NCBI RefSeq assembly: GCF_010731775.1
Contig: NZ_AP022590.1
Span: 2,790,001-2,854,000 of the forward strand
Source: Mycobacterium mantenii
GTDB lineage: Bacteria > Actinomycetota > Actinomycetes > Mycobacteriales > Mycobacteriaceae
Reading direction: 5' to 3'
DNA length: 64,000 nucleotides
Shown here: positions 19,638-43,089 of the stretch, piece by piece
Layout: every line of letters starts with the position of its first letter
Numbering within the stretch: the stretch's first letter is position 1
Notes under the pieces: model-generated
The model's database searches: none
Seen by the model: the letters and a program-made list of their open reading frames with translations, nothing else
Told to the model about the DNA's origin: nothing
Position numbers and translations under genes: made by a program

Positions 19638-22600
19638 CTACTGCCAGCAGACCTCATATACACGTTGGGGATCCCGCAGCCCTTTGAGCTGTTCCTCGCG
19701 CGTTTCGCCGAACTGGAACTCGTGACTGCCGGCAACCAACCCGCGCAGCACCGCCGAGACGAGGATTCCGTTCCCGTCTGCTTTCGCGCCGATCCGCGCC
19801 GCGAGGATCACGGTGTGCCCGAAAAAGTCCTCCTGTTCGCGAATCACCTCTCCGGTGTGGAGTCCGATCCGCACGCGCAGCACCTGGCTGCCGGACTGAT
19901 CCCGGTACGCCGCCAAGTCACGCTGGATTCCGATCGCGCAGCGCAGCGCGCTGCGGGCGCTGGCGAAGGCGACCATGAACCCGTCGCCCTGCGATTTGAC
20001 CTCGAAGCCACTATGGGCTGCCAGCTGGCGACGGATGACCGCGTTGTGGCGGTGCAACAGCTTCAGCCAGCGCTCGTCGCCGAGTTGCTCGGCAAGTACT
20101 GTCGAGCCTTCGATGTCGGAAAACATGATCGTGACCGTTCCGTCGGGAGCGGCCACTCTACTGAGATCGGGCCGGTCCGCCTCGACGGACTCTGCGACTT
20201 CGTCGATCACCGACCACCCGAGCGACGGCTTCTGGTTCCGCTTCTCCGCATGTTCTCGGCGCAGCTGCAGGAGGCGCTCGACCTCGACGCGCATGCCGTT
20301 GCGCTGTGCGACGGCGTGTCCCTGCTCGATCAGGCCCATGGCCTTCTCGCGATTCGCCGGCTCAGACGTGCGCAGCAGCATGCGCGCGTACTCGTAACAG
20401 ACCCGAGGCGTCACGTAGTCACAGCCGATCTCCGCATTACGTGCGAGGGCCAGCTCAAAGTGACGCACCGCGTCCTCACGGCGATCCGCCGCCGCGGCGG
20501 CGAAGGCCAGGAACGTGTGGTTGGAGCCGAGGCAACCGGCTCCGGCCAAAAACAGAGTGCAGCGATCTTCATAGGGCACCAGCAGCTCGTAGAGCGTGCT
20601 TGCAGCTTCTCGATCACAGATCGGGATCGAAGCCATCGAGAGCACGCACACCGACGTCAGCCAATCACTGCCGCGCCGCAGCGCCTCGAAGCCGTCGGCC
20701 GTAAGCTCCGCGAACCTGGCGCGGGCCTCATCGAGCTGGCCGATCTCAGTCAGCAGCCACACGTACGATGCCGGCCACGCCTGCCCGTAACGCGCGGCGG
20801 CTTCACGGCCGACGTCGCGCAACTGTTCGAGGGTGCCATCCGCGAGCCGGGTCAGAAACGAGTGCGCGCCAAAGACGACTGCCGCCACCTCGCGCTCGGC
20901 ACGCTGGCCGATCGACAGCGCCGTCGCCGCAAGACGTTCCGACTCCTTGTAGCGGCCCTGCATCAGCGCCCGCATCGTGCGGAACACCGCCGTCTGCCAC
21001 AGATATCGCGGCTGGCGCAGTTCGTTGGCCAGCCGGTCACACATCGCGATCTCCTGATCGACCGCCCGGAAGTCGCCGAGCTGGGCAAGCGCGATCAGCC
21101 GCAACTGGTGGCCCTCGAACTCCATGTCGCGGTCACCGACGATCCGAGCGAGCCGCGCCATCTCCTCGCCCGACGCGATCGCCTCTTCGATCCGGTCGGG
21201 ACCCAAGGTCGACCACTGCCGGCTGTGCATGGCCAGCAGCAAGATCTTCGTGTCACCGACGCGCTCGGCCATCTCGATGGCCTGCGCACTGGCCCGGTCG
21301 GCTTCTGCCAGCGCGCCCTTGCAGCGCAGCTCGAGCGCAAGCCGGGACAGGACTGTCACCCGAAGCGCGCTGTCCCGCGCAGGCAACACCTCAAGCGACT
21401 CGTCCAGCATCGCCACCAGCTGTTCGTCGGCGCGGTCGGTGATCGAGAAGCCGCCCGGACCGCCGCCGTATCCAAGCGCGGCACGGGCATAGTGGTCGTT
21501 CAGCGCCAGCTCGCGCGCAATCGTCGCAGCCTCGCCAAAAGTCTTGCGGGCACCTTCGGCTTCGCCGGCCCGCCATTGGGCGTCCCCGAGAGCCAGCAGC
21601 AGATCGCATCGGCGTTGAGGCACTACCTCCGAGATCGTGTCGAACAGTCGCAGCGCCGTCGCATAAAGGCTCACCGCGTCTTCGTAGGCATACGTCGCCG
21701 CCGCGCGTTCGCCCGCCCACCAGGCGTAGTCAGCGGCCTTTGCAGCGTCACCGTATGGAGCCGCCTTCGCGAAGTGGAACGCGATCGCAGACAGGTGGGA
21801 CTCGATCCGGTCCTCATAAAGTTCCTCGATTGCCTCGCCGGCAGCGATGTGCAGCTGGGAGCGCCGCAGGGTCGGCAGGTCGTCGTACAGCGCATCGCGA
21901 GTCGCGCCGTGCGCGAAGCCGTACCGGCCCGGCTCGCCGGCAGCCTGCCGCACGATCGCCCCCTCGAGAGCTGGCTGCATCCGCACCAACACGGCGTCCG
22001 CCTCCAAGGCGCTGACGTGGGTCAGCACCGGCAGGTCGAACTCGCGGCCTATCACCGCCGCGGTCGACAGCAGCTCGAGTGTTTCGGCGGGCAGCTTCTC
22101 CAACCGGCGGGAGACCACCTCGTGGACACCCCGGGGGATACCGAGCTCCCCATCGTCCCTGATGTTGACAACCCAACGGTCCTCGCGCCAATCAAGCACT
22201 TCGGAGTCGATCAGGTGGCGAACGATCTCTTCGGTGAAGTAGGGATTGCCTTCCGACTCTCGGCAGACGGCGTCGGCAAGCGCGAGTTCGTCACGCCGAT
22301 CGAGCGGTTGTTGCAGCACCGCTTCGAGCATCGCCTTGACGTGCTGATCGGAAAGCCCTCGCAGCTTGATGCGTGCGTAGCCGCGTTCCTTGCTGAGCCC
22401 AGTGAGCACTTCGTTCAAATAGTGATCATCGGGAAGCTCATCGTCGCGGTAGGTGCCCAGCACGAACACGCGAGAGTGCGCCAGCTCGCGCACGACGAAC
22501 GCCAACAACATCAGCGACGGTTGGTCGGCCTGATGCAAGTCCTCAAGGAAGATTGCCAGAGGCTGGCGGTCGGAAGCACCGATCAGGAATCGCGACACTG

Positions 22601-24083
22601 AATCAAACAGCCGGAATCGGGCCTGCTCGGCGTCCAATGCCGGCGATTCGGGGATCTCCGGCATCCGCTCGCGTATCTCGGAGACGATCTGTGCGATCTC
22701 GAACGCGCCAGAGCCCAAGTCCGAAGCCACCGTTTCGGCGTCGTGACCGCGTGCATAGTCGCGGATCACCTGAACCCACGGCCAATAGGCAGGAGCGCCC
22801 GCACCCGCATAGCAGCGACCCCACAGAACCTGCGCGCCCCGGAGGGCGGCGTATGCCGCGGCCTCCGACGCTAGCCGGGTCTTGCCGATCCCCGACTCGC
22901 CACTTATCAGCACAGTGCGGCCGCGCCGGCCCACAGCATCATCGATCGCGGCCCGGAGTTCGTGAGTCTCCCGCTCTCGTCCGAGGAATGTGCTATCGGT
23001 GATCCGGTCGAGCGCCGCCATGTCCTGAGTCGAGCCATCGCCACCGGCAACCGCAGCGGCGATGACCCCCAAAGCATCGCGAACCTCGGCTGCTTGCTGA
23101 GGGCGCGCCTCTGGCGACTTCGCCAGCATTTTGAGCAACAACTGGTCGAGCGCAGCTGGAACACCGGAGCGATGCCCGCTCGGTGCGACCGGAGCAGTCG
23201 AAACATGCTGGGAGACAATCGCAGCCGCTGACTCACCCGCGAACGGTATTACCCCGCAGAGCAATTCGTACAGGAGAGCACCAAGGGAGTAGATATCCGA
23301 ACGTGCGTCGGAACCCCGACCGAGAGCCTGCTCGGGCGGCATATAGGCAACAGTTCCGATCACCGTCCCAACGGCCGTCACTCGCGTTGCGCCTTCTGCG
23401 ACCGCGAGCCCGAAGTCTCCGATCTTGGCGGTGCCGTCGGGTGCCAGCCACACATTCTGGGGTTTGACGTCACGATGCACGACGCCCTGCGCGTGCGCGT
23501 GCGCCAGTCCGCCGGCGACGTCCTGGCCGATCCGGACCACCTCTTCAATGGCGAGTCGGTGATCCACCGCGTCTGACAACAGGCTGTAAAGGTCACCGCC
23601 TGCCATGTACTGGCTGATCAGGTATAGCTGCCCCACCTCATCGCCGAAGTCGTACACGTTGACGATGTTCGGGTGCTCGCCGAGCTTCGCCATCGCCTCG
23701 GCTTCCCGGCGTGCGCGGCGCATGGCTGCTTCGTCCGTACCGCCGGCCTTGAACACTGCGGCGGCCACCTCGCGCTGCAGACGGGTGTCCATGGCCAGGT
23801 ACACCCGCTTGCCGGCACCTTCGCCGAGTAGGCGGCCGAGCAGGTAACGCCCGTCTGCAAGCGTCTTGGGAACCGGCGGACCCGTAGGCTGCGCCGGGAC
23901 CGACCGCGCGCTCAGCTCAGTGCCGCACTCGTCACAGAAGCGCTGTCCCGCAGGGTGGCGCGCGCCGCATCCCGGGCATGCAATCTCTACCGCAAGCAGG
24001 CCGCCGCATTTGCCGCAGAACTTGGCCTGAGGCCGGTTCCCAGCCCCACACTTACCGCACTTCACATTCGCCGGCGCACTCAT
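19638..24083 (-). CDS. zinc-ribbon / Ser-Thr kinase / AAA ATPase / TPR / nucleotide cyclase fusion
   Basis: A 1481-residue multidomain signalling protein without membrane segments. Order: double zinc ribbon with four CxxC pairs (9-53); Ser/Thr kinase (about 79-345) with GEGAGKRV, Lys112, HRDVKPQN (203-210), DFG (223-225) and MPPEQ; AAA/STAND-type ATPase with Walker A GESGIGKT (395-402); a long helical TPR-like region (about 680-1290); and a C-terminal class III cyclase (about 1310-1481). The cyclase keeps both metal aspartates (FSDIEGST, Asp1323; GDG, Asp1367), a substrate-type Lys (about 1363) and the Arg of AAR. The transition-state Asn of the usual VNxAAR motif is Ile (VILAAR). Activity is therefore plausible but not certain. 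The ATG follows the preceding DegV stop by 3 bp, so it is the last gene of the operon. Confidence 0.88.
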   Translation of the reverse strand: MSAPANVKCGKCGAGNRPQAKFCGKCGGLLAVEIACPGCGARHPAGQRFCDECGTELSARSVPAQPTGPPVPKTLADGRYLLGRLLGEGAGKRVYLAMDTRLQREVAAAVFKAGGTDEAAMRRARREAEAMAKLGEHPNIVNVYDFGDEVGQLYLISQYMAGGDLYSLLSDAVDHRLAIEEVVRIGQDVAGGLAHAHAQGVVHRDVKPQNVWLAPDGTAKIGDFGLAVAEGATRVTAVGTVIGTVAYMPPEQALGRGSDARSDIYSLGALLYELLCGVIPFAGESAAAIVSQHVSTAPVAPSGHRSGVPAALDQLLLKMLAKSPEARPQQAAEVRDALGVIAAAVAGGDGSTQDMAALDRITDSTFLGRERETHELRAAIDDAVGRRGRTVLISGESGIGKTRLASEAAAYAALRGAQVLWGRCYAGAGAPAYWPWVQVIRDYARGHDAETVASDLGSGAFEIAQIVSEIRERMPEIPESPALDAEQARFRLFDSVSRFLIGASDRQPLAIFLEDLHQADQPSLMLLAFVVRELAHSRVFVLGTYRDDELPDDHYLNEVLTGLSKERGYARIKLRGLSDQHVKAMLEAVLQQPLDRRDELALADAVCRESEGNPYFTEEIVRHLIDSEVLDWREDRWVVNIRDDGELGIPRGVHEVVSRRLEKLPAETLELLSTAAVIGREFDLPVLTHVSALEADAVLVRMQPALEGAIVRQAAGEPGRYGFAHGATRDALYDDLPTLRRSQLHIAAGEAIEELYEDRIESHLSAIAFHFAKAAPYGDAAKAADYAWWAGERAAATYAYEDAVSLYATALRLFDTISEVVPQRRCDLLLALGDAQWRAGEAEGARKTFGEAATIARELALNDHYARAALGYGGGPGGFSITDRADEQLVAMLDESLEVLPARDSALRVTVLSRLALELRCKGALAEADRASAQAIEMAERVGDTKILLLAMHSRQWSTLGPDRIEEAIASGEEMARLARIVGDRDMEFEGHQLRLIALAQLGDFRAVDQEIAMCDRLANELRQPRYLWQTAVFRTMRALMQGRYKESERLAATALSIGQRAEREVAAVVFGAHSFLTRLADGTLEQLRDVGREAAARYGQAWPASYVWLLTEIGQLDEARARFAELTADGFEALRRGSDWLTSVCVLSMASIPICDREAASTLYELLVPYEDRCTLFLAGAGCLGSNHTFLAFAAAAADRREDAVRHFELALARNAEIGCDYVTPRVCYEYARMLLRTSEPANREKAMGLIEQGHAVAQRNGMRVEVERLLQLRREHAEKRNQKPSLGWSVIDEVAESVEADRPDLSRVAAPDGTVTIMFSDIEGSTVLAEQLGDERWLKLLHRHNAVIRRQLAAHSGFEVKSQGDGFMVAFASARSALRCAIGIQRDLAAYRDQSGSQVLRVRIGLHTGEVIREQEDFFGHTVILAARIGAKADGNGILVSAVLRGLVAGSHEFQFGETREEQLKGLRDPQRVYEVCWQ

Positions 24084-24086
24084 CGG

Positions 24087-24950
24087 TTACCTCAGCGCCG
24101 TGCCTGGAAGTCCACCGACCAACAGCGTCCCCGGACCGACATGCGTTGCAACAACGGGTCCGATCTCGGAGATGAACTCCGGCTCGGTGCCAAACAGTTC
24201 GGTGAGACGCTCGGCCAGCCGCTTTGCCTCCTCGTGCGCAAAGGCGTGCTGGACGAACCACCGGTCGGCACCCGCGGCGCGCCGCTGGACCATCAGTTCG
24301 ATAAGCCGCTCGACCCCTCGCCGGTGGGTGCGCACGCGCTCGAGGGCCTTGAGCTCCGATTCGATCGTCAGGATCGGTTTGAGATCGAGCGCCGATCCGA
24401 CCCAAGCGGCCACGGCTCCCACCCTGTTGCTTCGGCGGAGGTACTCGAGCGTATCCACCAGACCCCAGCCCTTGACTTCCTTGCGGGCCTGGCGCACGCG
24501 CTCGCTGACGCCTCCTGAGTCGGCTCCCCCGGCGGCGGCACGCGCTGCCACCAGCGCCTGGAGCCCGAGGTGGCCGCCGAAGCCGGCCGAGTCGATCACG
24601 ACCACCTGCTCGCCGCCGTCGCCCTCTAGCTTCGCGGCTGCCTGCCGAGCCATCGAGCAGGTCTCGGAAACGCCAGAGGAGATCAGCACCGAGACAACGG
24701 CGCTGTGCTGCTGCAGCAGCTGGTCAAAGACCGCGACGAAATCCTCGACTGCGGGGGCCGACGTTTTCGCGGTGTTCTTCGACGCGTCCAGTTCCGCATA
24801 GAACCGGGCGAAATCACCGTCGAACTCCGACTCACGCAGTGGTCCTGCACCAACGTCGTAATACTGCGACACCACCGTGATATCGAGCTTGTCGACGAGC
24901 GCAGGCGGCAGGTAGCCAGTGCTGTCGGTAACCACCGCGACATCAGCCAT
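24087..24950 (-). CDS. DegV family fatty-acid-binding-type protein (copy 1)
   Basis: A 287-residue DegV protein. Members such as FakB bind a fatty acid and present it to the FakA kinase. The N-terminal VVTDSTGYLPPAL and the segment LISSGVSETCSMARQAA correspond to the two family motifs. The ALDLKPIL strand leads into the C-terminal subdomain, and the protein ends with FISEIGPVVATHVGPGTL. The ATG at 24950 has GGAG seven bases upstream. It is closely related to the two upstream copies, especially over the C-terminal 100 residues, so it arose by tandem duplication. No DAK2/FakA-type kinase gene is in the window. Confidence 0.85.
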   Translation of the reverse strand: MADVAVVTDSTGYLPPALVDKLDITVVSQYYDVGAGPLRESEFDGDFARFYAELDASKNTAKTSAPAVEDFVAVFDQLLQQHSAVVSVLISSGVSETCSMARQAAAKLEGDGGEQVVVIDSAGFGGHLGLQALVAARAAAGGADSGGVSERVRQARKEVKGWGLVDTLEYLRRSNRVGAVAAWVGSALDLKPILTIESELKALERVRTHRRGVERLIELMVQRRAAGADRWFVQHAFAHEEAKRLAERLTELFGTEPEFISEIGPVVATHVGPGTLLVGGLPGTALR

Positions 24951-25026
24951 GCGCGCACTCCAGCCGGTCCCGAACACCTTGAATCATGTCCAGCCACGAC
25001 CCGTAAACCGCAGTAAGCGTACTGCC

Positions 25027-25053
25027 GCAGACTTCGCGTGGGGGGAAGTCTGC
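25027..25053 (-). repeat. perfect 9-bp inverted repeat in the DegV gap
   Basis: GCAGACTTC and its exact complement GAAGTCTGC flank a 9-base G-rich loop. It lies in the 155-bp gap between DegV copies 2 and 1, the only long gap in the operon. There is no T-run after it on the minus strand, so it does not look like a simple intrinsic terminator. An mRNA stability element, attenuator or operator are possible roles. Confidence 0.55.
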
Positions 25054-25105
25054 TGACTTTCGTCGAACACCTGGGCTGCACCGTGACCAGGGGCCGCGAT
25101 CCTCG

Positions 25106-25996
25106 CTAACCCAGCGCGGCACTGGGAAGACCGCCGACCGTCAGCATCCCCGGACCGGTATGAGTTGCGAGTACCGGTCCGACCGGAGAGATGAACTCCG
25201 GCTCGGTGCCGAACAGCCCAGCGAGACGCTCGGCCAGCCGCTGCGCGTCCTCGTGCGCATCGGCGTGCTGGACGAACCATCGATCGGCGCCGACGGCGCG
25301 CCGCTGTCGCATCAGCTCGACCAACCGCTCGACCCCGCGCCTGAACGTGCGCACGCGTTCGACGGCCTTCATCTCTGATTCGATCATCAAGATCGGCTTG
25401 AGGTCGAGCGCCGATCCGATCCATGCGGCGGCGGTGCCGACCCGTCCGCCGCGCCTCAGATACTCAAGCGTGTCGACAAGGACCCATTGCCTGACCTCCT
25501 GGCGCGCCCGGCGTGCCTGCTCGGCCACGCCCTGTAGGTCGGCTCCTGCCGCCGCGGCACGCGCCGCCGCCAGCGCTTGACAACCCAGGTGGCCGGCCAC
25601 GCCGGCCGAATCGAAGACCTTTATCCGCTCGCCGTCCACCCGTGCCGCCGCCTCACGTGCGAACTCGCACGTCGGGGACAGGTTTGACCCAAGCATGATG
25701 GCGACCACGGCGCTGTGTTCCTGCAGCAGCCGTTCATAGGCTGCAACGAAATCCTCGACCTTGGGCGGCCCCGTCGTCGCGACTGTCTTCGATGCGTCCA
25801 GTTCGGCGAAGAACCGTGCCCAATCACCGTCGAAGTCCGACTCCCGCTCCCCCCTGCCAGGCAGCTCATGACCGCCGGTGGGCGACGCGGCACCAGTGAT
25901 GTCGTAATACAGGGACACCACCGTGATGCCCAGGCTCTCGACGAGCGCCCGCGGCAACGCGCAGGTGCTGTCGGTAACGATTGCGACTTCAGCCAT
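25106..25996 (-). CDS. DegV family fatty-acid-binding-type protein (copy 2)
   Basis: A 296-residue DegV paralogue. The first motif is VTDSTCALPRALVESLG. The second is altered, LGSNLSPTCEFAREAA, where the other two copies have ISSGxSETCSM. It also carries an insertion of about ten residues after the second strand (ASPTGGHELPGRGER). These changes line the expected fatty-acid head-group and pocket region, so ligand preference may differ. The ATG at 25996 has GGAGG six bases upstream; another ATG two codons earlier is possible. It overlaps the end of copy 3 by 8 bp. Confidence 0.83.
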   Translation of the reverse strand: MAEVAIVTDSTCALPRALVESLGITVVSLYYDITGAASPTGGHELPGRGERESDFDGDWARFFAELDASKTVATTGPPKVEDFVAAYERLLQEHSAVVAIMLGSNLSPTCEFAREAAARVDGERIKVFDSAGVAGHLGCQALAAARAAAAGADLQGVAEQARRARQEVRQWVLVDTLEYLRRGGRVGTAAAWIGSALDLKPILMIESEMKAVERVRTFRRGVERLVELMRQRRAVGADRWFVQHADAHEDAQRLAERLAGLFGTEPEFISPVGPVLATHTGPGMLTVGGLPSAALG

Positions 25997-26870
25997 ATGC
26001 ACCCTCCAATGCCGTTCCGGGGAGATTTCCGGCTACCAACGTCCCCGGACCGGTGTGTGTTGCCAGCACCGGGCTGAGCTCCGAGATGAACTCCGGCTCG
26101 GCCTCGAAAATTGCAGCGAGGCGCTCGGCCAACCGCTTCGCGTCCTCGCGTGCATCCGCGTGCTGGACGAACCACCGATCGGCGCCCACCCCGCGCCGCT
26201 GTCGCATCAATTCGACCAACCGCTCGACGGCGCGCTTGCGCGTGCGCACGCGTTCGACGGCCCTGAACTGTGATTCGACCATCAGGATCGGCTTGAGATC
26301 GAGCGCCGATCCAAGCCATGCGGCGGCGCCACCGATCCGACCACCGCGCCTCAGATACTCAAGCGTGTCGAGAACGACCCACTGCCGGACTTCCTGACGT
26401 GCCCGACGCGTCGCCGCAATCACCCCCGTGGCGTCTTCTCCAGCGGCGGCCGCCCGCGCGCCTGCGAGCGCCTGAAGACCCAACTGGCCGGCCGCACCGG
26501 CCGAGTCGAGCACCACAACCCGCTCGCCACCGCGGCCCTCGGATTCCAGCTCTGCGACGGCCTGCCGAGTCATCGAGCAGGTCTCGGAAAGGCCCGACGA
26601 GATCAGGACAGCGACGACGGCGCTGTGCTGCTCCAACAGTCGGTCATAGACGGTGACGAAATCCTCGACGGTAGGCGGCGACGTCTTCGCAACGCTCTTT
26701 GACGCGTCCAGTTCCGCGTAGAACCGTCCGAAATCTCCGTCGAAATCCAACTCACGAAGCCACCCGCCACCCACGTCGTAGTACAGCGACACCACCGTGA
26801 TGCCCACGCTCTCGACGAGCGCCCGCGGCAACGAGCAGGTGCTGTCGGTAACCACCGCGACCTCAGGCAT
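25989..26870 (-). CDS. DegV family fatty-acid-binding-type protein (copy 3)
   Basis: A 293-residue DegV paralogue and the first of the three to be translated. Motifs are VVTDSTCSLPRALVES and LISSGLSETCSMTRQAV. The C-terminal ALDLKPILMVESQ and FISELSPVLATHTGPGTL match the other copies. Its start overlaps the stop of the MFS-patatin gene by 8 bp and its end overlaps copy 2, so all are translated from one message. M. tuberculosis has, to my knowledge, a single DegV gene (Rv2417c) elsewhere, so three tandem copies here are unusual. Confidence 0.83.
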   Translation of the reverse strand: MPEVAVVTDSTCSLPRALVESVGITVVSLYYDVGGGWLRELDFDGDFGRFYAELDASKSVAKTSPPTVEDFVTVYDRLLEQHSAVVAVLISSGLSETCSMTRQAVAELESEGRGGERVVVLDSAGAAGQLGLQALAGARAAAAGEDATGVIAATRRARQEVRQWVVLDTLEYLRRGGRIGGAAAWLGSALDLKPILMVESQFRAVERVRTRKRAVERLVELMRQRRGVGADRWFVQHADAREDAKRLAERLAAIFEAEPEFISELSPVLATHTGPGTLVAGNLPGTALEGAYG

Positions 26871-29800
26871 GCGCAGATTCGCCCTGCACTACCCGCATGA
26901 TCTGCGGCAGGGCTTCACGGGTCGCGATTCGGCCGGCCTCGCGGGCACGGTCGATCTGGTGCCATTCGAGGAAGCCGATGCTGCTGGTGTCGGGGTGGAT
27001 CGCCAGATCCGCCTGCTCGAGAACGGTAGACGTTGCCATCGCGCTGCCGATCGTCATGGTGCGCATGAGCGTGTCGACGACGTTCGGCACCCGCGGCGAG
27101 CGCGCCAGCTTCGTGTCGCTTGCGGGGGTTGCCTGCTGACCGGTGCCTATGCTCACCGCGAGCAGTGGGCCCTCGTGGCGCGCCAGCGTCGTTACCGGCA
27201 GGTTGTCGAGCACACCGCCATCGACGTGTAGCACCCCGTCATAAACGATCGGTGCGTACAAACCCGGCACCCGCAGGGAACAACCGACGACATCGGCGAG
27301 CGGACCTCGTCGATGCACGACGGCCCGGCGTGCCAGCAGGTCGACGCTGACACAGCGGAATTCCTTCGGCAATTCCTCGACTAGCTGTCCCCCGAAGACA
27401 CTGTCGAGGGCGCCCAAGGTGCGCCGCCCGCGAATCAGTCCCTTGCTGGGCAGGGTGTAGTCGTTGGTCGGGTTGCTGCGAATGAAGTACTCGTAGATAT
27501 TGGCGTCTACGGCCGCTGCATCCTTACCGGTCGCCGCGAGTGCCGCGATGATTGCGCCCATACTGGTCCCGGCATAACGGTCGACCACGACCCCCGCCGC
27601 CTCCAGCTCGTCCAGCACCCCCAGGTGCGCAAACGCCCGAGCGGCGCCACCGCTGAGGACCAGCCCGACCGAACGGCCCGCGACGCGTGCGGCGAGTGGG
27701 CGCAGATCGGCAGGCGCGTGTTCGGAGCGGACCGCATGCACCGAGCGAGGCGCTATCAACTCCTCCCATCGGCGCCGATGTTCACGGCTGGCGGGCGCTC
27801 CTGCGAGGACTAGGTCGGCGCCCGCCGCCCGCGCCGGCATCGATGCGGACGGGGGTGCCGGATCAGCCGCGACCAGAACCACCCGGTCCGCCGAACGCAG
27901 GCAGAAGTCGCGCCATTCCGAGTCATCGGCCGCCGCGTGCAACACCACTTTGTCCGCGATCCGCTCGGCGCGCTCCAGCCCGTCGCGATCCACCCGGCCG
28001 GGATCCGCCACCTGTAACTGCCCCGATAGCGCGGCGACCAACTCGGCGGCCACCATCGATACAGGCGCGTGGTTGTCGAGGCCGATGACCGCGACGACCG
28101 CTTCAGGCGCCGGGGCAGGCGGGAACGCCGGCGGCGGGGCCTGGTGTAGCCGGGTCGCCAGCACCCGGACCAATGCCTCGAGGACTCCCGAGTGGGCAAT
28201 CTTGTCGAATTGGGTCTTGGTAAGCCGCACCAGGGTCGAGTCCCGCACTGCTCGAACCGATGCGGAGCGGGGCGCATCGATCAGCAGTCCGAGCTCGCCG
28301 ACGACCTCGCCCCGTCCCAATTCCGTTAGTACGACGTCATTCTGGAGCACTTGCAGGCGACCATTTCGCACCACGTACAACGAATCGGACGCCTCGCCCG
28401 CGTGAAAGAGGAACGACCCCGCCTCCAAGTCGATCTGATCGGCATGGTCTCGCAGCTCTGCCAGGCTGACAGGGTCCAGCCCCGCAAACAGCGGGAGACC
28501 GCCGAGCGGATCGATCTCACCATCCGAAAGCGACCGGCCCTCGGCGGGTAGGGACACGAGCCCCGGCGCCGACGGCGATCCCGGCGAATCGACTTGCGGT
28601 GGGAGCTCAGACTCCTCGGCCCCCGCGGCGACGTGGCGAGTGCGTCCGAGTAGCACACCGCCGATAGCAACCACCGCAAAACAGACGGCGGCCAGTACCC
28701 AACCGCGTCGCAACGTCAGTTCGGAGGCGCCGTGAGCCGGCGTTCCGACCACAATCACCAACAACGCGATTCCGATCACGGCACCGAGTTGGCGCGTGCT
28801 GCTGACCACCGCCGACGCCGTCGCGTAGCTGCCGCCCGCGGCCAGCCCGGCCAGGGCGGCGCTGCCGAGCATCGGCAGCGTGGCTCCGACCCCGTGGCCC
28901 TGGAGAATTTGACCGGGCAACCACTGCCCGAGGAAATCGGGTGTGGAACCGACGCGTTCGATGTACCACAGCAGGCTGCCTGTCCACGTCAGTGCGCCGG
29001 CAATGATGATGAGGCGGTAACCGTGCCGGTCGGCGACGCGCCCGAGTACCGCGGCGACGACAGCCGCGACGAACGCGGCGGGCGCGACCGCGAGGCCCGC
29101 GCGCAACAAGTTGTAACCCCACACGTAGTTGAGGAACAACACGTGGGTCAGCAGGTAGGCGTAGAACCCGGCGCTGGCAATCAGCGTCAGAGCGTTGCCG
29201 GCCGTAAACGACCGGATGCGCAGCAACGCGGGCTCTATCAGCGGTGTTGGATGACTCCGCGAACTCATCACGAATCCAAGCATCGCGACCACTGCGGCGA
29301 GGAATGACCCGATGGTTGCCGGGCTGACCCAGCCCCAGTCCGGACCCTTGACCAAGCCGAGAGTCAAACAACCGAGCCCGAAGGCGAGCAACGCGGCGCC
29401 CCGCAAGTCGGGCACGCGCCGCCGTCCGGAAGCGCGGCTTTCCACCAGTCCTCGCCGGGCTACCGCCACAGCCACAAAGCCGAGCGGCACGTTGACCAGG
29501 AAGACCCAGCGCCAACTCGATGCCTCCACCAGAGCGCCGCCGATCGGCGGTCCGAGGCCGGACGCGATGGCGGCTGCCGCGCCCCAGAGGCCGACACCGT
29601 GTGCGCGGCGTGCCTCATCGAAACTCTCGACTACGAGCGCGAGGGATGCCGGCACCAGGACCGCCGCTCCGATGCCTTGCAGCACGCGGAATGCGACGAG
29701 CTGGCCAACGGTGTCGGCGACCGCGCACAATGCGGACGCGACGGTGAACAACACCACACCGTAGATGAACATCCGCTTGCGCCCGAGCAAGTCGGCAAGC

Positions 29801-30159
29801 CTGCCGCCGGCCACCAGGAACGCGGCGAAGGCGATGTTGTAGGCGTTGAGCACCCACGACAGGCTGCTGATGTCGGCGCTGTGGAAGTACCGCTGGATGG
29901 CCGGGAACGCGATGTTGACGATCGTCGAGTCGAGGAATGCCAGGAACGCGCCGAACGCCGCGACCAGTAGGACCGCTGTCGAAGACGGTTGACGACGTCT
30001 AATGAGCGCAGTGGCAGGTCGTCTCCCGGCGAGACGTCGTCTGCTCATCGCATTATTGACCGGGTTGAAACCAGCGATAGCTCGGGCATCCCGGGTCCTC
30101 GCATGATCGCCGGCATGCTTCCCGCGAGTCGCGGAATGAGCAGCAGTTTTGTTCGCCAT
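26863..30159 (-). CDS. MFS transporter / cNMP-binding / patatin lipase fusion
   Basis: A 1098-residue protein with three modules, similar in layout to M. tuberculosis Rv3239c and Rv3728. A DHA2-type 14-helix MFS domain (about 60-500, with DSTIVNIAFPAI and GRLADLLGRKR) comes first. A cyclic-nucleotide-binding domain (about 530-645) follows; its phosphate cassette GELGLLIDAPRSASV keeps the Glu and Arg needed to hold cAMP. A linker leads to a patatin-like phospholipase domain starting near 832, with the oxyanion motif GGAARAF, nucleophile Ser866 in GTSMG and Asp980 in DGGV. A lipase gated by cyclic nucleotide is the likely reading. The ATG at 30159 was preferred to a start at 30201 because of GGAG upstream. 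It is the first gene of the five-gene operon. Confidence 0.9.
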   Translation of the reverse strand: MANKTAAHSATRGKHAGDHARTRDARAIAGFNPVNNAMSRRRLAGRRPATALIRRRQPSSTAVLLVAAFGAFLAFLDSTIVNIAFPAIQRYFHSADISSLSWVLNAYNIAFAAFLVAGGRLADLLGRKRMFIYGVVLFTVASALCAVADTVGQLVAFRVLQGIGAAVLVPASLALVVESFDEARRAHGVGLWGAAAAIASGLGPPIGGALVEASSWRWVFLVNVPLGFVAVAVARRGLVESRASGRRRVPDLRGAALLAFGLGCLTLGLVKGPDWGWVSPATIGSFLAAVVAMLGFVMSSRSHPTPLIEPALLRIRSFTAGNALTLIASAGFYAYLLTHVLFLNYVWGYNLLRAGLAVAPAAFVAAVVAAVLGRVADRHGYRLIIIAGALTWTGSLLWYIERVGSTPDFLGQWLPGQILQGHGVGATLPMLGSAALAGLAAGGSYATASAVVSSTRQLGAVIGIALLVIVVGTPAHGASELTLRRGWVLAAVCFAVVAIGGVLLGRTRHVAAGAEESELPPQVDSPGSPSAPGLVSLPAEGRSLSDGEIDPLGGLPLFAGLDPVSLAELRDHADQIDLEAGSFLFHAGEASDSLYVVRNGRLQVLQNDVVLTELGRGEVVGELGLLIDAPRSASVRAVRDSTLVRLTKTQFDKIAHSGVLEALVRVLATRLHQAPPPAFPPAPAPEAVVAVIGLDNHAPVSMVAAELVAALSGQLQVADPGRVDRDGLERAERIADKVVLHAAADDSEWRDFCLRSADRVVLVAADPAPPSASMPARAAGADLVLAGAPASREHRRRWEELIAPRSVHAVRSEHAPADLRPLAARVAGRSVGLVLSGGAARAFAHLGVLDELEAAGVVVDRYAGTSMGAIIAALAATGKDAAAVDANIYEYFIRSNPTNDYTLPSKGLIRGRRTLGALDSVFGGQLVEELPKEFRCVSVDLLARRAVVHRRGPLADVVGCSLRVPGLYAPIVYDGVLHVDGGVLDNLPVTTLARHEGPLLAVSIGTGQQATPASDTKLARSPRVPNVVDTLMRTMTIGSAMATSTVLEQADLAIHPDTSSIGFLEWHQIDRAREAGRIATREALPQIMRVVQGESAHA

Positions 30160-41463: not shown

Positions 41464-43089
41464 ATGTCGGCCACCCACAGCTTGGCAAAACGCATCGGCC
41501 GGGTGCTCGAGACGGTCACCCGGCAGAGCGGCCGGTTACCGGAGACTCCGGCCTACGGCTCCCTGCTGCTCGGCCGGGTCTCCGAAAGCCAGCGACGTCG
41601 GCGCATCCGCATTCAGATCATCCTGACCGTGCTGGTGCTGGGGGCCAACCTGATCGGCATCGCCGTCGCGCTGCTCCTGGTGACGGTCGCCATTCCGCAG
41701 CCAAGCGTGTTCGACGCACCGTGGTGGATAACCTTCCTGGCATCACCGGGCTATACCGCGCTGGCACTGGCCGTGGGCACTTATTGGATCACCCGCAGGA
41801 CCGTCGTATCGCTCCGCTGGGCCATCGAGGAGCGCACGCCCAACCAGGATGATGAGCGCAATACTTTCCTGGCCCCGTGGCGGATCGCCCGCTTCGATCT
41901 CATCCTTTGGGGGGTCGGGGCGGTGGTGCTGACGACGCTCTACGGCCTGGTCAACACGCTGTTCATCCCGCGCTTCCTCATCGCGGTGGGCATCTGCGGC
42001 ATCTTGGTCGCCACCGGCAGTTATCTGCTCGCCGAGTTCGCGCTGCGCCCTGCGGCGGCTCAGGCGCTCGAAGCGGGGCCACCACCGCGGCGATTCGCCT
42101 CGGGCATCATGGGCCGGACCATGGTGGTCTGGTTCCTCGGGTCGGGCCTGCCCGTTCTCGGCATCGCCTCTCTGGCGGGCTTTCAGGCCCTGATGCGCAA
42201 CCTGACCGAAACCCAGTTCGCGGTCGGCGTGTTCATCGTGTCGATAGCCACGATGACCTTCGGTTGCGTCCTGATGTGGATCCTGGCCTGGCTCACCGCG
42301 ACACCGGTGCGCGTGGTCCGTGCGGCGCTGCGGCGTGTCGAGCGGGGTGACCTGCGGGGCGACCTCGTCGTGTTCGACGGCACCGAACTCGGTGAGCTAC
42401 AACGCGGTTTCAACGCGATGGTGGACGGGCTACGCGAGCGCGAACGCGTTCGCGACCTTTTCGGCCGGCACGTCGGCCGCGATGTCGCCCTGGCCGCGGA
42501 ACGCGAGCGGCCGAAGCTGGGCGGTGAAGAACGTCACGTTGCCGTCCTCTTCATCGACATCGTCGGCTCCACCCAGTTGGTCACCACTCGGCCACCCGCC
42601 GAGGTCGTTTCGGTGCTTAACCAATTTTTCGGCATCGTCGTCGAGGAAGTAGACCGCCACCGCGGGCTGGTCAATAAATTCGAGGGCGATGCGACGCTGG
42701 CCATCTTCGGGGCCCCGAATTACCTGGACAGTCCCGAAGACGAGGCGCTGGCCACCGCACGCTGCATTGCCGAGCGCCTGAACGACGAAATGCCGGATTG
42801 CCAGGCCGGCATTGGCGTGGCGGCGGGTCAAGTCGTCGCGGGCAACGTCGGCGCGAGGGAACGCTTCGAATACACCGTGATCGGTGAACCGGTCAACGCG
42901 GCAGCGCGGCTGTGCGAACTCGCCAAGTCGCACCCGAACCGGCTGCTCGCGACGGCCGACACCATCGAGGGGGCAGGTGAAAACGAACGGACACGTTGGT
43001 CTTTGGGTGACAGCGTGACCCTTCGCGGGCACGACCGTCCCACTCGGCTGGCGGCGCCCGCCGGGGCTGACGATCCGCCGCACGATTGA
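41464..43089 (+). CDS. membrane adenylate cyclase with HAMP domain (Rv1318c/Rv1319c/Rv1320c type)
   Basis: A 541-residue class III cyclase. Six predicted membrane helices occupy the N-terminal half (about 48-275). They are followed by a HAMP linker (about 275-330) and the catalytic domain (about 355-525) with FIDIVGST (first metal Asp), [12 protein letters not shown] (substrate Lys and second metal Asp) and VNAAARL (transition-state Asn and Arg), so all catalytic residues are present. It produces cAMP at the membrane in response to an unknown signal. M. tuberculosis has three such genes in a row at this point; only one is seen here. Confidence 0.92.

What the first reader, a model, noticed from the sequence alone, without database searches (positions are those of the whole stretch)
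19638..30159. Inserted five-gene operon linking a cyclase/kinase, three DegV proteins and a cNMP-gated patatin-transporter
In M. tuberculosis dinG and glgP are neighbours. Here 10.5 kb lies between them with five genes on one strand: MFS-cNMP-patatin, DegV x3, and a zinc-ribbon/kinase/ATPase/TPR/cyclase protein. Junctions are 8-bp overlaps or a 3-bp gap, apart from one 155-bp gap with a hairpin. The parts fit one circuit: the cyclase makes cyclic nucleotide, the cNMP domain senses it and gates the patatin lipase, and DegV/FakB-type proteins carry the released fatty acids. MFS-cNMP-patatin fusions are known alone in mycobacteria (Rv3239c, Rv3728), but I know of no description of this combination. 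The pathway is inference from domains and gene order.
Basis: partly seen in the sequence, partly recalled or inferred. Interest (0 to 1): 0.8.

Follow-up and report, generated by a model that had tools for sequence, protein, structure and literature searches.

The report
Cyclic-nucleotide lipid-handling operon in mycobacteria
A mycobacterial gene cluster puts an enzyme predicted to make a chemical messenger, a membrane lipase built like one switched by such a messenger, and three likely fatty-acid carriers side by side; related mycobacteria assemble the same kind of trio from other parts, which makes a messenger-controlled fat-handling circuit a testable idea.

Summary
It is conserved: full-length relatives of the kinase/ATPase/cyclase protein (CYC) occur in 12 of 297 sampled congeners, and the DegV group in the same 12. 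The transporter-cNMP-patatin (PAT) lies beside DegV-CYC in 8 of those 12, so DegV-CYC is the core. PAT supports the circuit in another way: of 35 PAT loci read (of 40 found), 26 have a class III cyclase gene within five genes, in several unlike arrangements. In 16 of 35 the next gene downstream handles fatty acids: DegV, desaturase or WS/DGAT. Key residues of cyclase, cNMP domain, patatin and all three DegVs are intact. A FakA-like protein exists in the genome; no PlsY was found. Unexpected: CYC's kinase domain lacks the usual beta-3 lysine and has a lysine in the glycine loop at the place used by eukaryotic WNK kinases (118 of 118 and 117 of 117 rows with letters there). Cyclic-nucleotide binding, gating, fatty-acid binding and cotranscription are inference. 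New variant of a known kind; interest 0.62.

The parts
26863..30159 (-). PAT: MFS transporter - cNMP-binding domain - patatin (from ATG; 30201 from TTG)
   Evidence: ORF; Pfam
28747..29958 (-). PAT, MFS part (DHA2/EmrB type; closest solved chain by sequence is EfpA)
   Evidence: (TIGR00711 236.9 against cut-off 230.2)
28195..28431 (-). PAT, cNMP-binding domain; Glu636 and Arg645 of the binding motif kept in 35 of 35 PAT rows with letters there
27184..27663 (-). PAT, patatin domain; Ser880 (GTSMG) and Asp994 (DGG) kept in 35 of 35 rows with letters there
25989..26870 (-). DegVa
   Evidence: Pfam DegV 224 bits; FakB1 residues present
25106..25996 (-). DegVb (from ATG; GTG at 26002 possible)
   Evidence: Pfam DegV 218 bits
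24951..25105 (-). 155-bp gap DegVb/DegVc; hairpin not better than chance
24087..24950 (-). DegVc (from ATG; GTG at 24977 possible)
   Evidence: Pfam DegV 208 bits
19638..24083 (-). CYC: zinc ribbon - kinase - AAA ATPase - helical repeats - class III cyclase
23097..23840 (-). CYC kinase domain: Lys in the glycine loop (Lys92), Ala109 in place of the beta-3 lysine
22461..22988 (-). CYC AAA_16 ATPase
19656..20147 (-). CYC class III cyclase domain

Best explanation
The locus is a conserved mycobacterial lipid-handling module under cyclic-nucleotide control. CYC is a soluble integrator: zinc ribbon, kinase, STAND-type ATPase and helical repeats sense an unknown signal and switch its C-terminal class III cyclase, which most likely makes cAMP. 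The cyclic nucleotide binds the cNMP domain of PAT and frees the patatin active site, which cuts acyl chains from membrane or storage lipid beside its MFS part. The DegV proteins take up the freed fatty acids as FakB-type carriers and pass them on, possibly to the FakA-like protein of the genome. Shown by sequence: gene set, order, conservation, key residues, repeated linkage of PAT to cyclases and to fatty-acid genes. Inferred: the messenger's identity, binding, gating, lipase substrate, fatty-acid binding, the signal and the kinase's targets.
For: CYC relatives of 72% or more and the DegV group occur in the same 12 of 297 genomes. A class III cyclase lies within five genes of PAT in 26 of 35 loci, against 16 such genes in the whole 6.19-Mb genome. 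Arrangements differ: DegV-CYC; cyclase-AAA upstream; FHA-cyclase upstream; response-regulator-cyclase divergent. The gene after PAT is DegV in 8, desaturase in 5, WS/DGAT in 3 of 35. Cyclase: both metal Asp, Lys and Asp for ATP and the Arg kept; the Asn place is Ile, and Ma1120, the closest solved relative, has Ala there and is an active adenylyl cyclase. PAT motif residues invariant. FakB1 Thr62, Ser95, Arg173, Arg205 and His270 have counterparts in all three window DegVs. FakA-like protein present.
Against: PAT is not beside DegV-CYC in 4 of 12 genomes. 8 of 35 PAT loci have no cyclase nearby, and G233 has a type-B-like cyclase-AAA gene without PAT (L172). The cyclase profile was built from four of the arrangements it then counted; Pfam confirmed examples only, the FHA type just over its cut-off (22.5 and 24.6 against 21.9). 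No PlsY match. No DegV or patatin near 16 relatives of CYC outside mycobacteria. The DegVs fall far short of the FakB1 equivalog cut-off (127-137 against 350). No binding or activity data.
Confidence: 0.45

Rival explanations
1. The true unit is CYC plus DegV. The DegVs are fatty-acid-loaded inputs that regulate CYC, or substrates of its kinase, and PAT is an optional neighbour. Fatty acid is then the signal rather than the product.
For: DegV and CYC co-occur in 12 of 12 genomes, PAT beside them in 8. DegVc is the copy next to CYC in the window.
Against: PAT has its own repeated link to cyclases and fatty-acid genes. G064 also has a second CYC without DegV, divergent from a PAT (L159).
Confidence: 0.25
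2. The kinase domain of CYC is a pseudokinase and only a nucleotide-binding scaffold; the cyclase is the sole output.
For: The beta-3 lysine is absent in all rows with letters there: 119 and 120. By the criterion in PMC12599244 (passage) loss of it is grounds to call a pseudokinase unless activity is shown.
Against: HRD Asp in 121 of 121 and 119 of 120, DFG Asp in 121 of 121 and 120 of 120, helix-C Glu in 119 of 119 and 120 of 120, and a glycine-loop Lys in 118 of 118 and 117 of 117: a dead domain would not be expected to keep these.
Confidence: 0.25
3. Chance assembly: unrelated lineage-specific genes gathered at a variable site.
For: Patchy distribution (12 of 297); dinG and glgP are 1.5-5.6 kb apart in four of six relatives checked.
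Against: DegV-CYC stay together at other sites in G104, G064 and G159, and the block lies at the same site in the opposite orientation in M. gastri and M. ostraviense.
Confidence: 0.05

Closest known systems
Mycobacterial MFS-cNMP-patatin proteins Rv3239c and Rv3728 (domain make-up recalled; listed among efflux pumps in PMC6300501, passage seen)
   Same: Same three-part architecture as PAT (recalled).
   Different: The loci I take to be their orthologues by recalled neighbours (SecA side, L176 and L178; oxidoreductase side, L177, L190, L191) have no cyclase or DegV nearby.
Ma1120, class III adenylyl cyclase of M. avium (PMC4215837, passages; 4wp3)
   Same: Closest solved relative of the CYC cyclase domain (154.8 bits); Lys and Asp of the ATP type, no Asn at the transition-state place.
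   Different: CYC carries zinc ribbon, kinase and ATPase in front; Ile in place of Ala at the Asn position.
FakA/FakB fatty-acid kinase system of Firmicutes (PMC8892158, passages)
   Same: DegV fold family; counterparts of Thr62, Ser95, Arg173, Arg205, His270; FakA-like protein in the genome.
   Different: Below the FakB1 and FakA equivalog cut-offs; tandem copies beside a cyclase and a lipase; no PlsY match.
Eukaryotic WNK kinases (PMC1821047, passages)
   Same: No beta-3 lysine; lysine at glycine-loop position 55 (PKA numbering); helix-C Glu, HRD and DFG kept.
   Different: By sequence CYC is nearest StkP and PknB; bacterial; fused to ATPase and cyclase.
TOMM system kinase/cyclase fusion (TIGR03903)
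   Same: Kinase, ATPase and cyclase in one protein; the model matches the ATPase part best.
   Different: 264.8 bits against a cut-off of 705.75.

Membership tests
FakB fatty-acid carriers (DegV) | DegV domain over cut-off | tested here: met
   208-224 bits against 27; TIGR00762 222-238 against 99.7
FakB fatty-acid carriers (DegV) | Residues of the carboxylate network and FakA contact (FakB1 Thr62, Ser95, Ser171, Arg173, Arg205, His270) | tested here: met
   All but Ser171 in all three window DegVs; in 32 rows Thr 32, Ser95 31, Arg173 30 (Lys 2), Arg205 32, His270 27; the Ser171 place is Gly 20, Ser 12
FakB fatty-acid carriers (DegV) | NCBIfam FakB1 equivalog cut-off | tested here: not met
   127-137 bits against 350
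FakB fatty-acid carriers (DegV) | Bound fatty acid and transfer to FakA | not testable with these tools
   -
Class III adenylyl cyclase | Two metal Asp, Lys/Asp pair for ATP, Arg | tested here: met
   Asp1323 117, Asp1367 118, Lys1363 112, Asp1419 117, Arg1430 118 of 118 lettered rows
Class III adenylyl cyclase | Transition-state Asn | tested here: not met
   Ile in the window and in 94 of 118 rows, Asn in 15; also absent in the active Ma1120
cNMP-binding domain | Pfam cut-off and binding-motif Glu/Arg | tested here: met
   67.4 bits against 27.5; Glu636 and Arg645 in 35 of 35
cNMP-binding domain | Binds cAMP or cGMP | not testable with these tools
   -
Patatin-like lipase | Ser-Asp dyad | tested here: met
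   Ser880 and Asp994 in 35 of 35
WNK kinases | Lys at glycine-loop position 55 and none at the beta-3 place | tested here: met
   118 of 118 and 117 of 117 Lys at 55; 0 of 119 and 0 of 120 Lys at beta-3
WNK kinases | Kinship with eukaryotic WNKs | tested here: not met
   Best solved matches are bacterial StkP and PknB; no WNK among the 60 shown
WNK kinases | Active kinase using the relocated lysine | not testable with these tools
   -
TOMM kinase/cyclase fusion | TIGR03903 cut-off | tested here: not met
   264.8 against 705.75 bits

The most novel reading that the evidence does not exclude
CYC belongs to a broad bacterial kinase clade that moved its ATP-anchoring lysine from beta-3 to the glycine loop, arriving independently at the WNK solution. 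In mycobacteria such a kinase, fused to a STAND ATPase and a cyclase, runs a modular circuit in which a cyclic nucleotide opens a membrane lipase and an interchangeable third gene (DegV/FakB, desaturase or wax-ester/DGAT synthase) decides the fate of the freed fatty acid.
Probability: 0.35. Interest if true: 0.82.

Novelty: new variant of a known kind. Interest (0 to 1): 0.62.

Why it matters
Mycobacteria carry many cyclases (16 class III domains in this genome), and the outputs of most are unknown (recalled). Repeated coupling of unlike cyclases to one lipase family offers a concrete cyclic-nucleotide effector to test and ties it to fatty-acid handling. Separately, a 2007 survey called WNK the only functional ePK family lacking the catalytic lysine (PMC1821047, passages); a conserved bacterial clade with the same relocation would show that this solution arose more than once.

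Tried and rejected
A hairpin regulator in the 155-bp gap: no stronger than shuffles. Chloride sensing by analogy with WNK: nothing here supports it; CYC has DFG where WNK has DLG (recalled). A plasmid origin of the DegV group: no match in the plasmid collection at E 1e-30. Foreign base composition: operon 66.6% G+C, window 66.0%. DegV or patatin as neighbours of CYC outside mycobacteria: none by tblastn in the stretches read around 16 relatives; of the 11 of these with the kinase part, three have a cNMP-domain match nearby (L226, L228, L232). Structure prediction was not run, because I expected no residue geometry from it.

Limits: the genome search scored few candidates per genome (2 or 3 for CYC and PAT, 8 for DegV), so copy counts are lower bounds. 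One search lists 42 PAT places, which I count as 40 loci (two genes are listed in two pieces each); 35 were read for neighbours, five were not (one of two in G105, second ones in G219, G216 and G015, and G076). Genes in relatives were called by a simple codon-score script trained on the window, so starts and small genes are uncertain. The rows are the top 120 hits of two searches (plus the window's protein), not a census; they are different entries, but some of the second set are fragments of proteins of the first kind. Papers PMC4215837, PMC1821047, PMC12599244 (passages, abstract and section 13), PMC8892158, PMC3388012, PMC6300501 and PMC2447327 were seen as passages; others only as search listings.
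Full report
OBSERVATION. Pfam and NCBIfam confirm the domains. The window lies in a 6.19-Mb one-contig genome; the closest named relatives by CYC are Mycobacterium sp. E2479 (94%), Mycobacterium sp. 1465703.0 (93%), M. vulneris (92%) and M. colombiense (91-92%). The genome has four DegV genes: three here, and one elsewhere that is 38-45% identical to them.

CONSERVATION. Of 297 congeneric genomes, 12 have a full-length CYC relative of 72% identity or more, and the same 12 have DegV relatives at E <= 1e-60. Five further genomes passed the CYC threshold only with a distinct protein about 32% identical (type B below). DegV copies per CYC-DegV locus range from 1 to 5. DegVa, DegVb and DegVc each group with copies from close relatives with good support. 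PAT is beside DegV-CYC in 8 of the 12 (G000, G061, G074, G104, G219, G233, G265, G274). In G269 an 84-residue stretch from near its C-terminus remains (L011); in G283 and G159 none was seen at the locus; G064 has PAT only away from its DegVs. DegV-CYC is therefore the core. In the window's close group the block sits between dinG and glgP. In M. gastri and M. ostraviense it sits at the same site in the opposite orientation (L008, L014). In G104 dinG-glgP are on another contig, in G064 they are about 13 kb away, and in G159 neither gene lies in the stretch read and no glgP match was found at E <= 1e-100. Among six relatives whose dinG-glgP interval was measured, two have 58 and 260 bp and four have 1.5-5.6 kb, content not read.

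PAT AND ITS PARTNERS. I read the neighbourhoods of 35 of 40 PAT loci, at 64% identity or more. A profile built here finds a class III cyclase gene within five genes of PAT in 26. One (L171) is cut by a contig end inside the AAA part of such a protein, and 8 have none (L174, L176, L177, L178, L180, L185, L190, L191). The profile's four seeds came from arrangements A to D, so it is a count rather than an independent test; Pfam PF00211 was met in the examples scanned. Arrangements: A, PAT-DegV(n)-CYC, 8 loci including the window; A2, CYC divergent from PAT (L159); B, a cyclase-AAA protein of about 1100 residues directly upstream of PAT (L160, L167, L168, L169, L181, L182, and L171 truncated); C, an FHA-cyclase upstream and a Ser/Thr kinase downstream (L170, L179, L184, L186-L189), with an FHA-cyclase near PAT on the other strand in two more (L164, L165); D, a response-regulator-cyclase divergent from PAT (L173, L175). 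In L164 and L166 glgP lies within two genes of PAT. As a counter-example, G233 has a type-B-like protein without PAT beside it (L172). For scale, the window's genome has 16 class III cyclase domains in 6.19 Mb, so a given 13-kb stretch would hold one about 3% of the time.

The next gene downstream of PAT on its strand is a DegV in the 8 type-A loci, a fatty-acid desaturase in 5 (L159, L160, L167, L169, L174; from a 37-bp overlap of called genes to a 13-bp gap) and a WS/DGAT gene in 3 (L171, L181, L182; 6-48 bp): 16 of 35. Pfam was run on three of the five desaturases and two of the three WS/DGAT genes; the rest follow by clustering. On the PAT tree, type A and type B each need two changes, forced by well-supported branches, so partners were exchanged or lost more than once. 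Outside the genus, three loci with a PAT relative of 52% or more were read: two have a cyclase-AAA gene within three genes (L257, L258), one does not (L256).

ACTIVE SITES. The CYC cyclase keeps both metal Asp, the ATP-type Lys/Asp pair and the Arg; the usual Asn is Ile. Ma1120, the closest solved relative, has Ala there and is an active adenylyl cyclase. The PAT cNMP Glu/Arg and the patatin Ser/Asp are invariant in 35 of 35 rows with letters there. That these are the cNMP phosphate/ribose contacts and the lipase dyad is recalled family knowledge. The three window DegVs hold the counterparts of FakB1 Thr62, Ser95, Arg173, Arg205 and His270, while the Ser171 place is Gly, Gly and Ser in a, b and c. 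The genome has one FakA-like match (YloV model 457 bits against 396; FakA equivalog 154 against 975), and no PlsY match, where the same search rings in 8 of 14 control genomes. The fate of any acyl-phosphate is therefore open. That PlsY is the usual user is recalled, with support in an abstract listing (PMC12594616).

THE KINASE. In 119 lettered rows of the CYC family the beta-3 lysine position is Ala (97) or Ser (22), never Lys. Glycine-loop position 55 (PKA numbering) is Lys in 118 of 118, helix-C Glu in 119 of 119, HRD and DFG Asp in 121 of 121. A second search with the kinase domain alone gave Lys at 55 in 117 of 117 and no beta-3 Lys in 120. Sources that name their proteins place them in Mycobacterium, Thermoleophilaceae, Solirubrobacterales, Chloroflexi, Dehalococcoidia, Gammaproteobacteria, Blastocatellia and Thermoanaerobaculia, mostly as metagenome bins. 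Seven other kinases from the PAT loci align without gaps in the glycine loop and have Gly at 55 and the beta-3 Lys. WNK kinases carry this swap, and a 2007 survey called them the only functional ePK family lacking K72 (PMC1821047, passages). A 2025 review of bacterial pseudokinase families (PMC12599244, passages and section 13) does not describe this combination in what I read. Lys112, three residues past the beta-3 place (114 of 119, 104 of 119), is a possible alternative anchor; many bacterial kinases have a basic residue there. By sequence the domain is nearest StkP and PknB, so the swap is parallel to WNK, not inherited from it.

PRINT. Ten searches of the open PMC library listed no paper that, from titles, abstract starts or the passages read, describes this operon, the PAT-cyclase pattern or this kinase clade. 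Subscription papers and preprints are not held. McCue et al. 2000 on cNMP-binding proteins of M. tuberculosis was seen only as a reference and is not held; it may already name the cNMP domain of PAT.

VERDICT. Everything biochemical is still inference.

Noticed in passing
window 23757-23810 (CYC kinase N-lobe): Glycine-loop lysine and no beta-3 lysine, as in eukaryotic WNK kinases; constant in the bacterial relatives sampled.
   Followed up: partly
L226:4245-4910; L228:4412-4813; L232:14455-14760: Relatives of CYC outside mycobacteria have a Crp-family gene overlapping the end of CYC (L226), a cNMP-only gene beside it (L228) or a cNMP match downstream (L232).
   Followed up: partly
L258:23-6888; L257:623-11378: Outside the genus PAT relatives lie near a metallo-beta-lactamase-fold gene, a cyclase-AAA gene and an MFS-cNMP gene without patatin.
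   Followed up: partly
L008 and L014 (M. gastri, M. ostraviense): The operon lies at the same dinG-glgP site in the opposite orientation, with a PAT that sits elsewhere on the PAT tree: inversion or a second arrival.
   Followed up: partly
L271, L273, L274, L276: The dinG-glgP interval is 1.5-5.6 kb in these relatives, content not read: possibly a variable-cargo site.
   Followed up: no
L152, L153, L154, L155, L156, L157, L158, L161, L162, L163, L183: Tandem DegV number varies from 1 to 5 between related species.
   Followed up: partly
L181:2101-3879; gene 8 of L184: Stand-alone cNMP-patatin proteins (about 590 aa) near several B- and C-type PAT loci.
   Followed up: no
window 42532-43029 (+): A second class III cyclase domain in the window (56.9 bits to PF00211).
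   Followed up: no
whole genome G000: A FakA-like protein and four DegVs but no PlsY match: where acyl-phosphate would go is unclear.
   Followed up: partly
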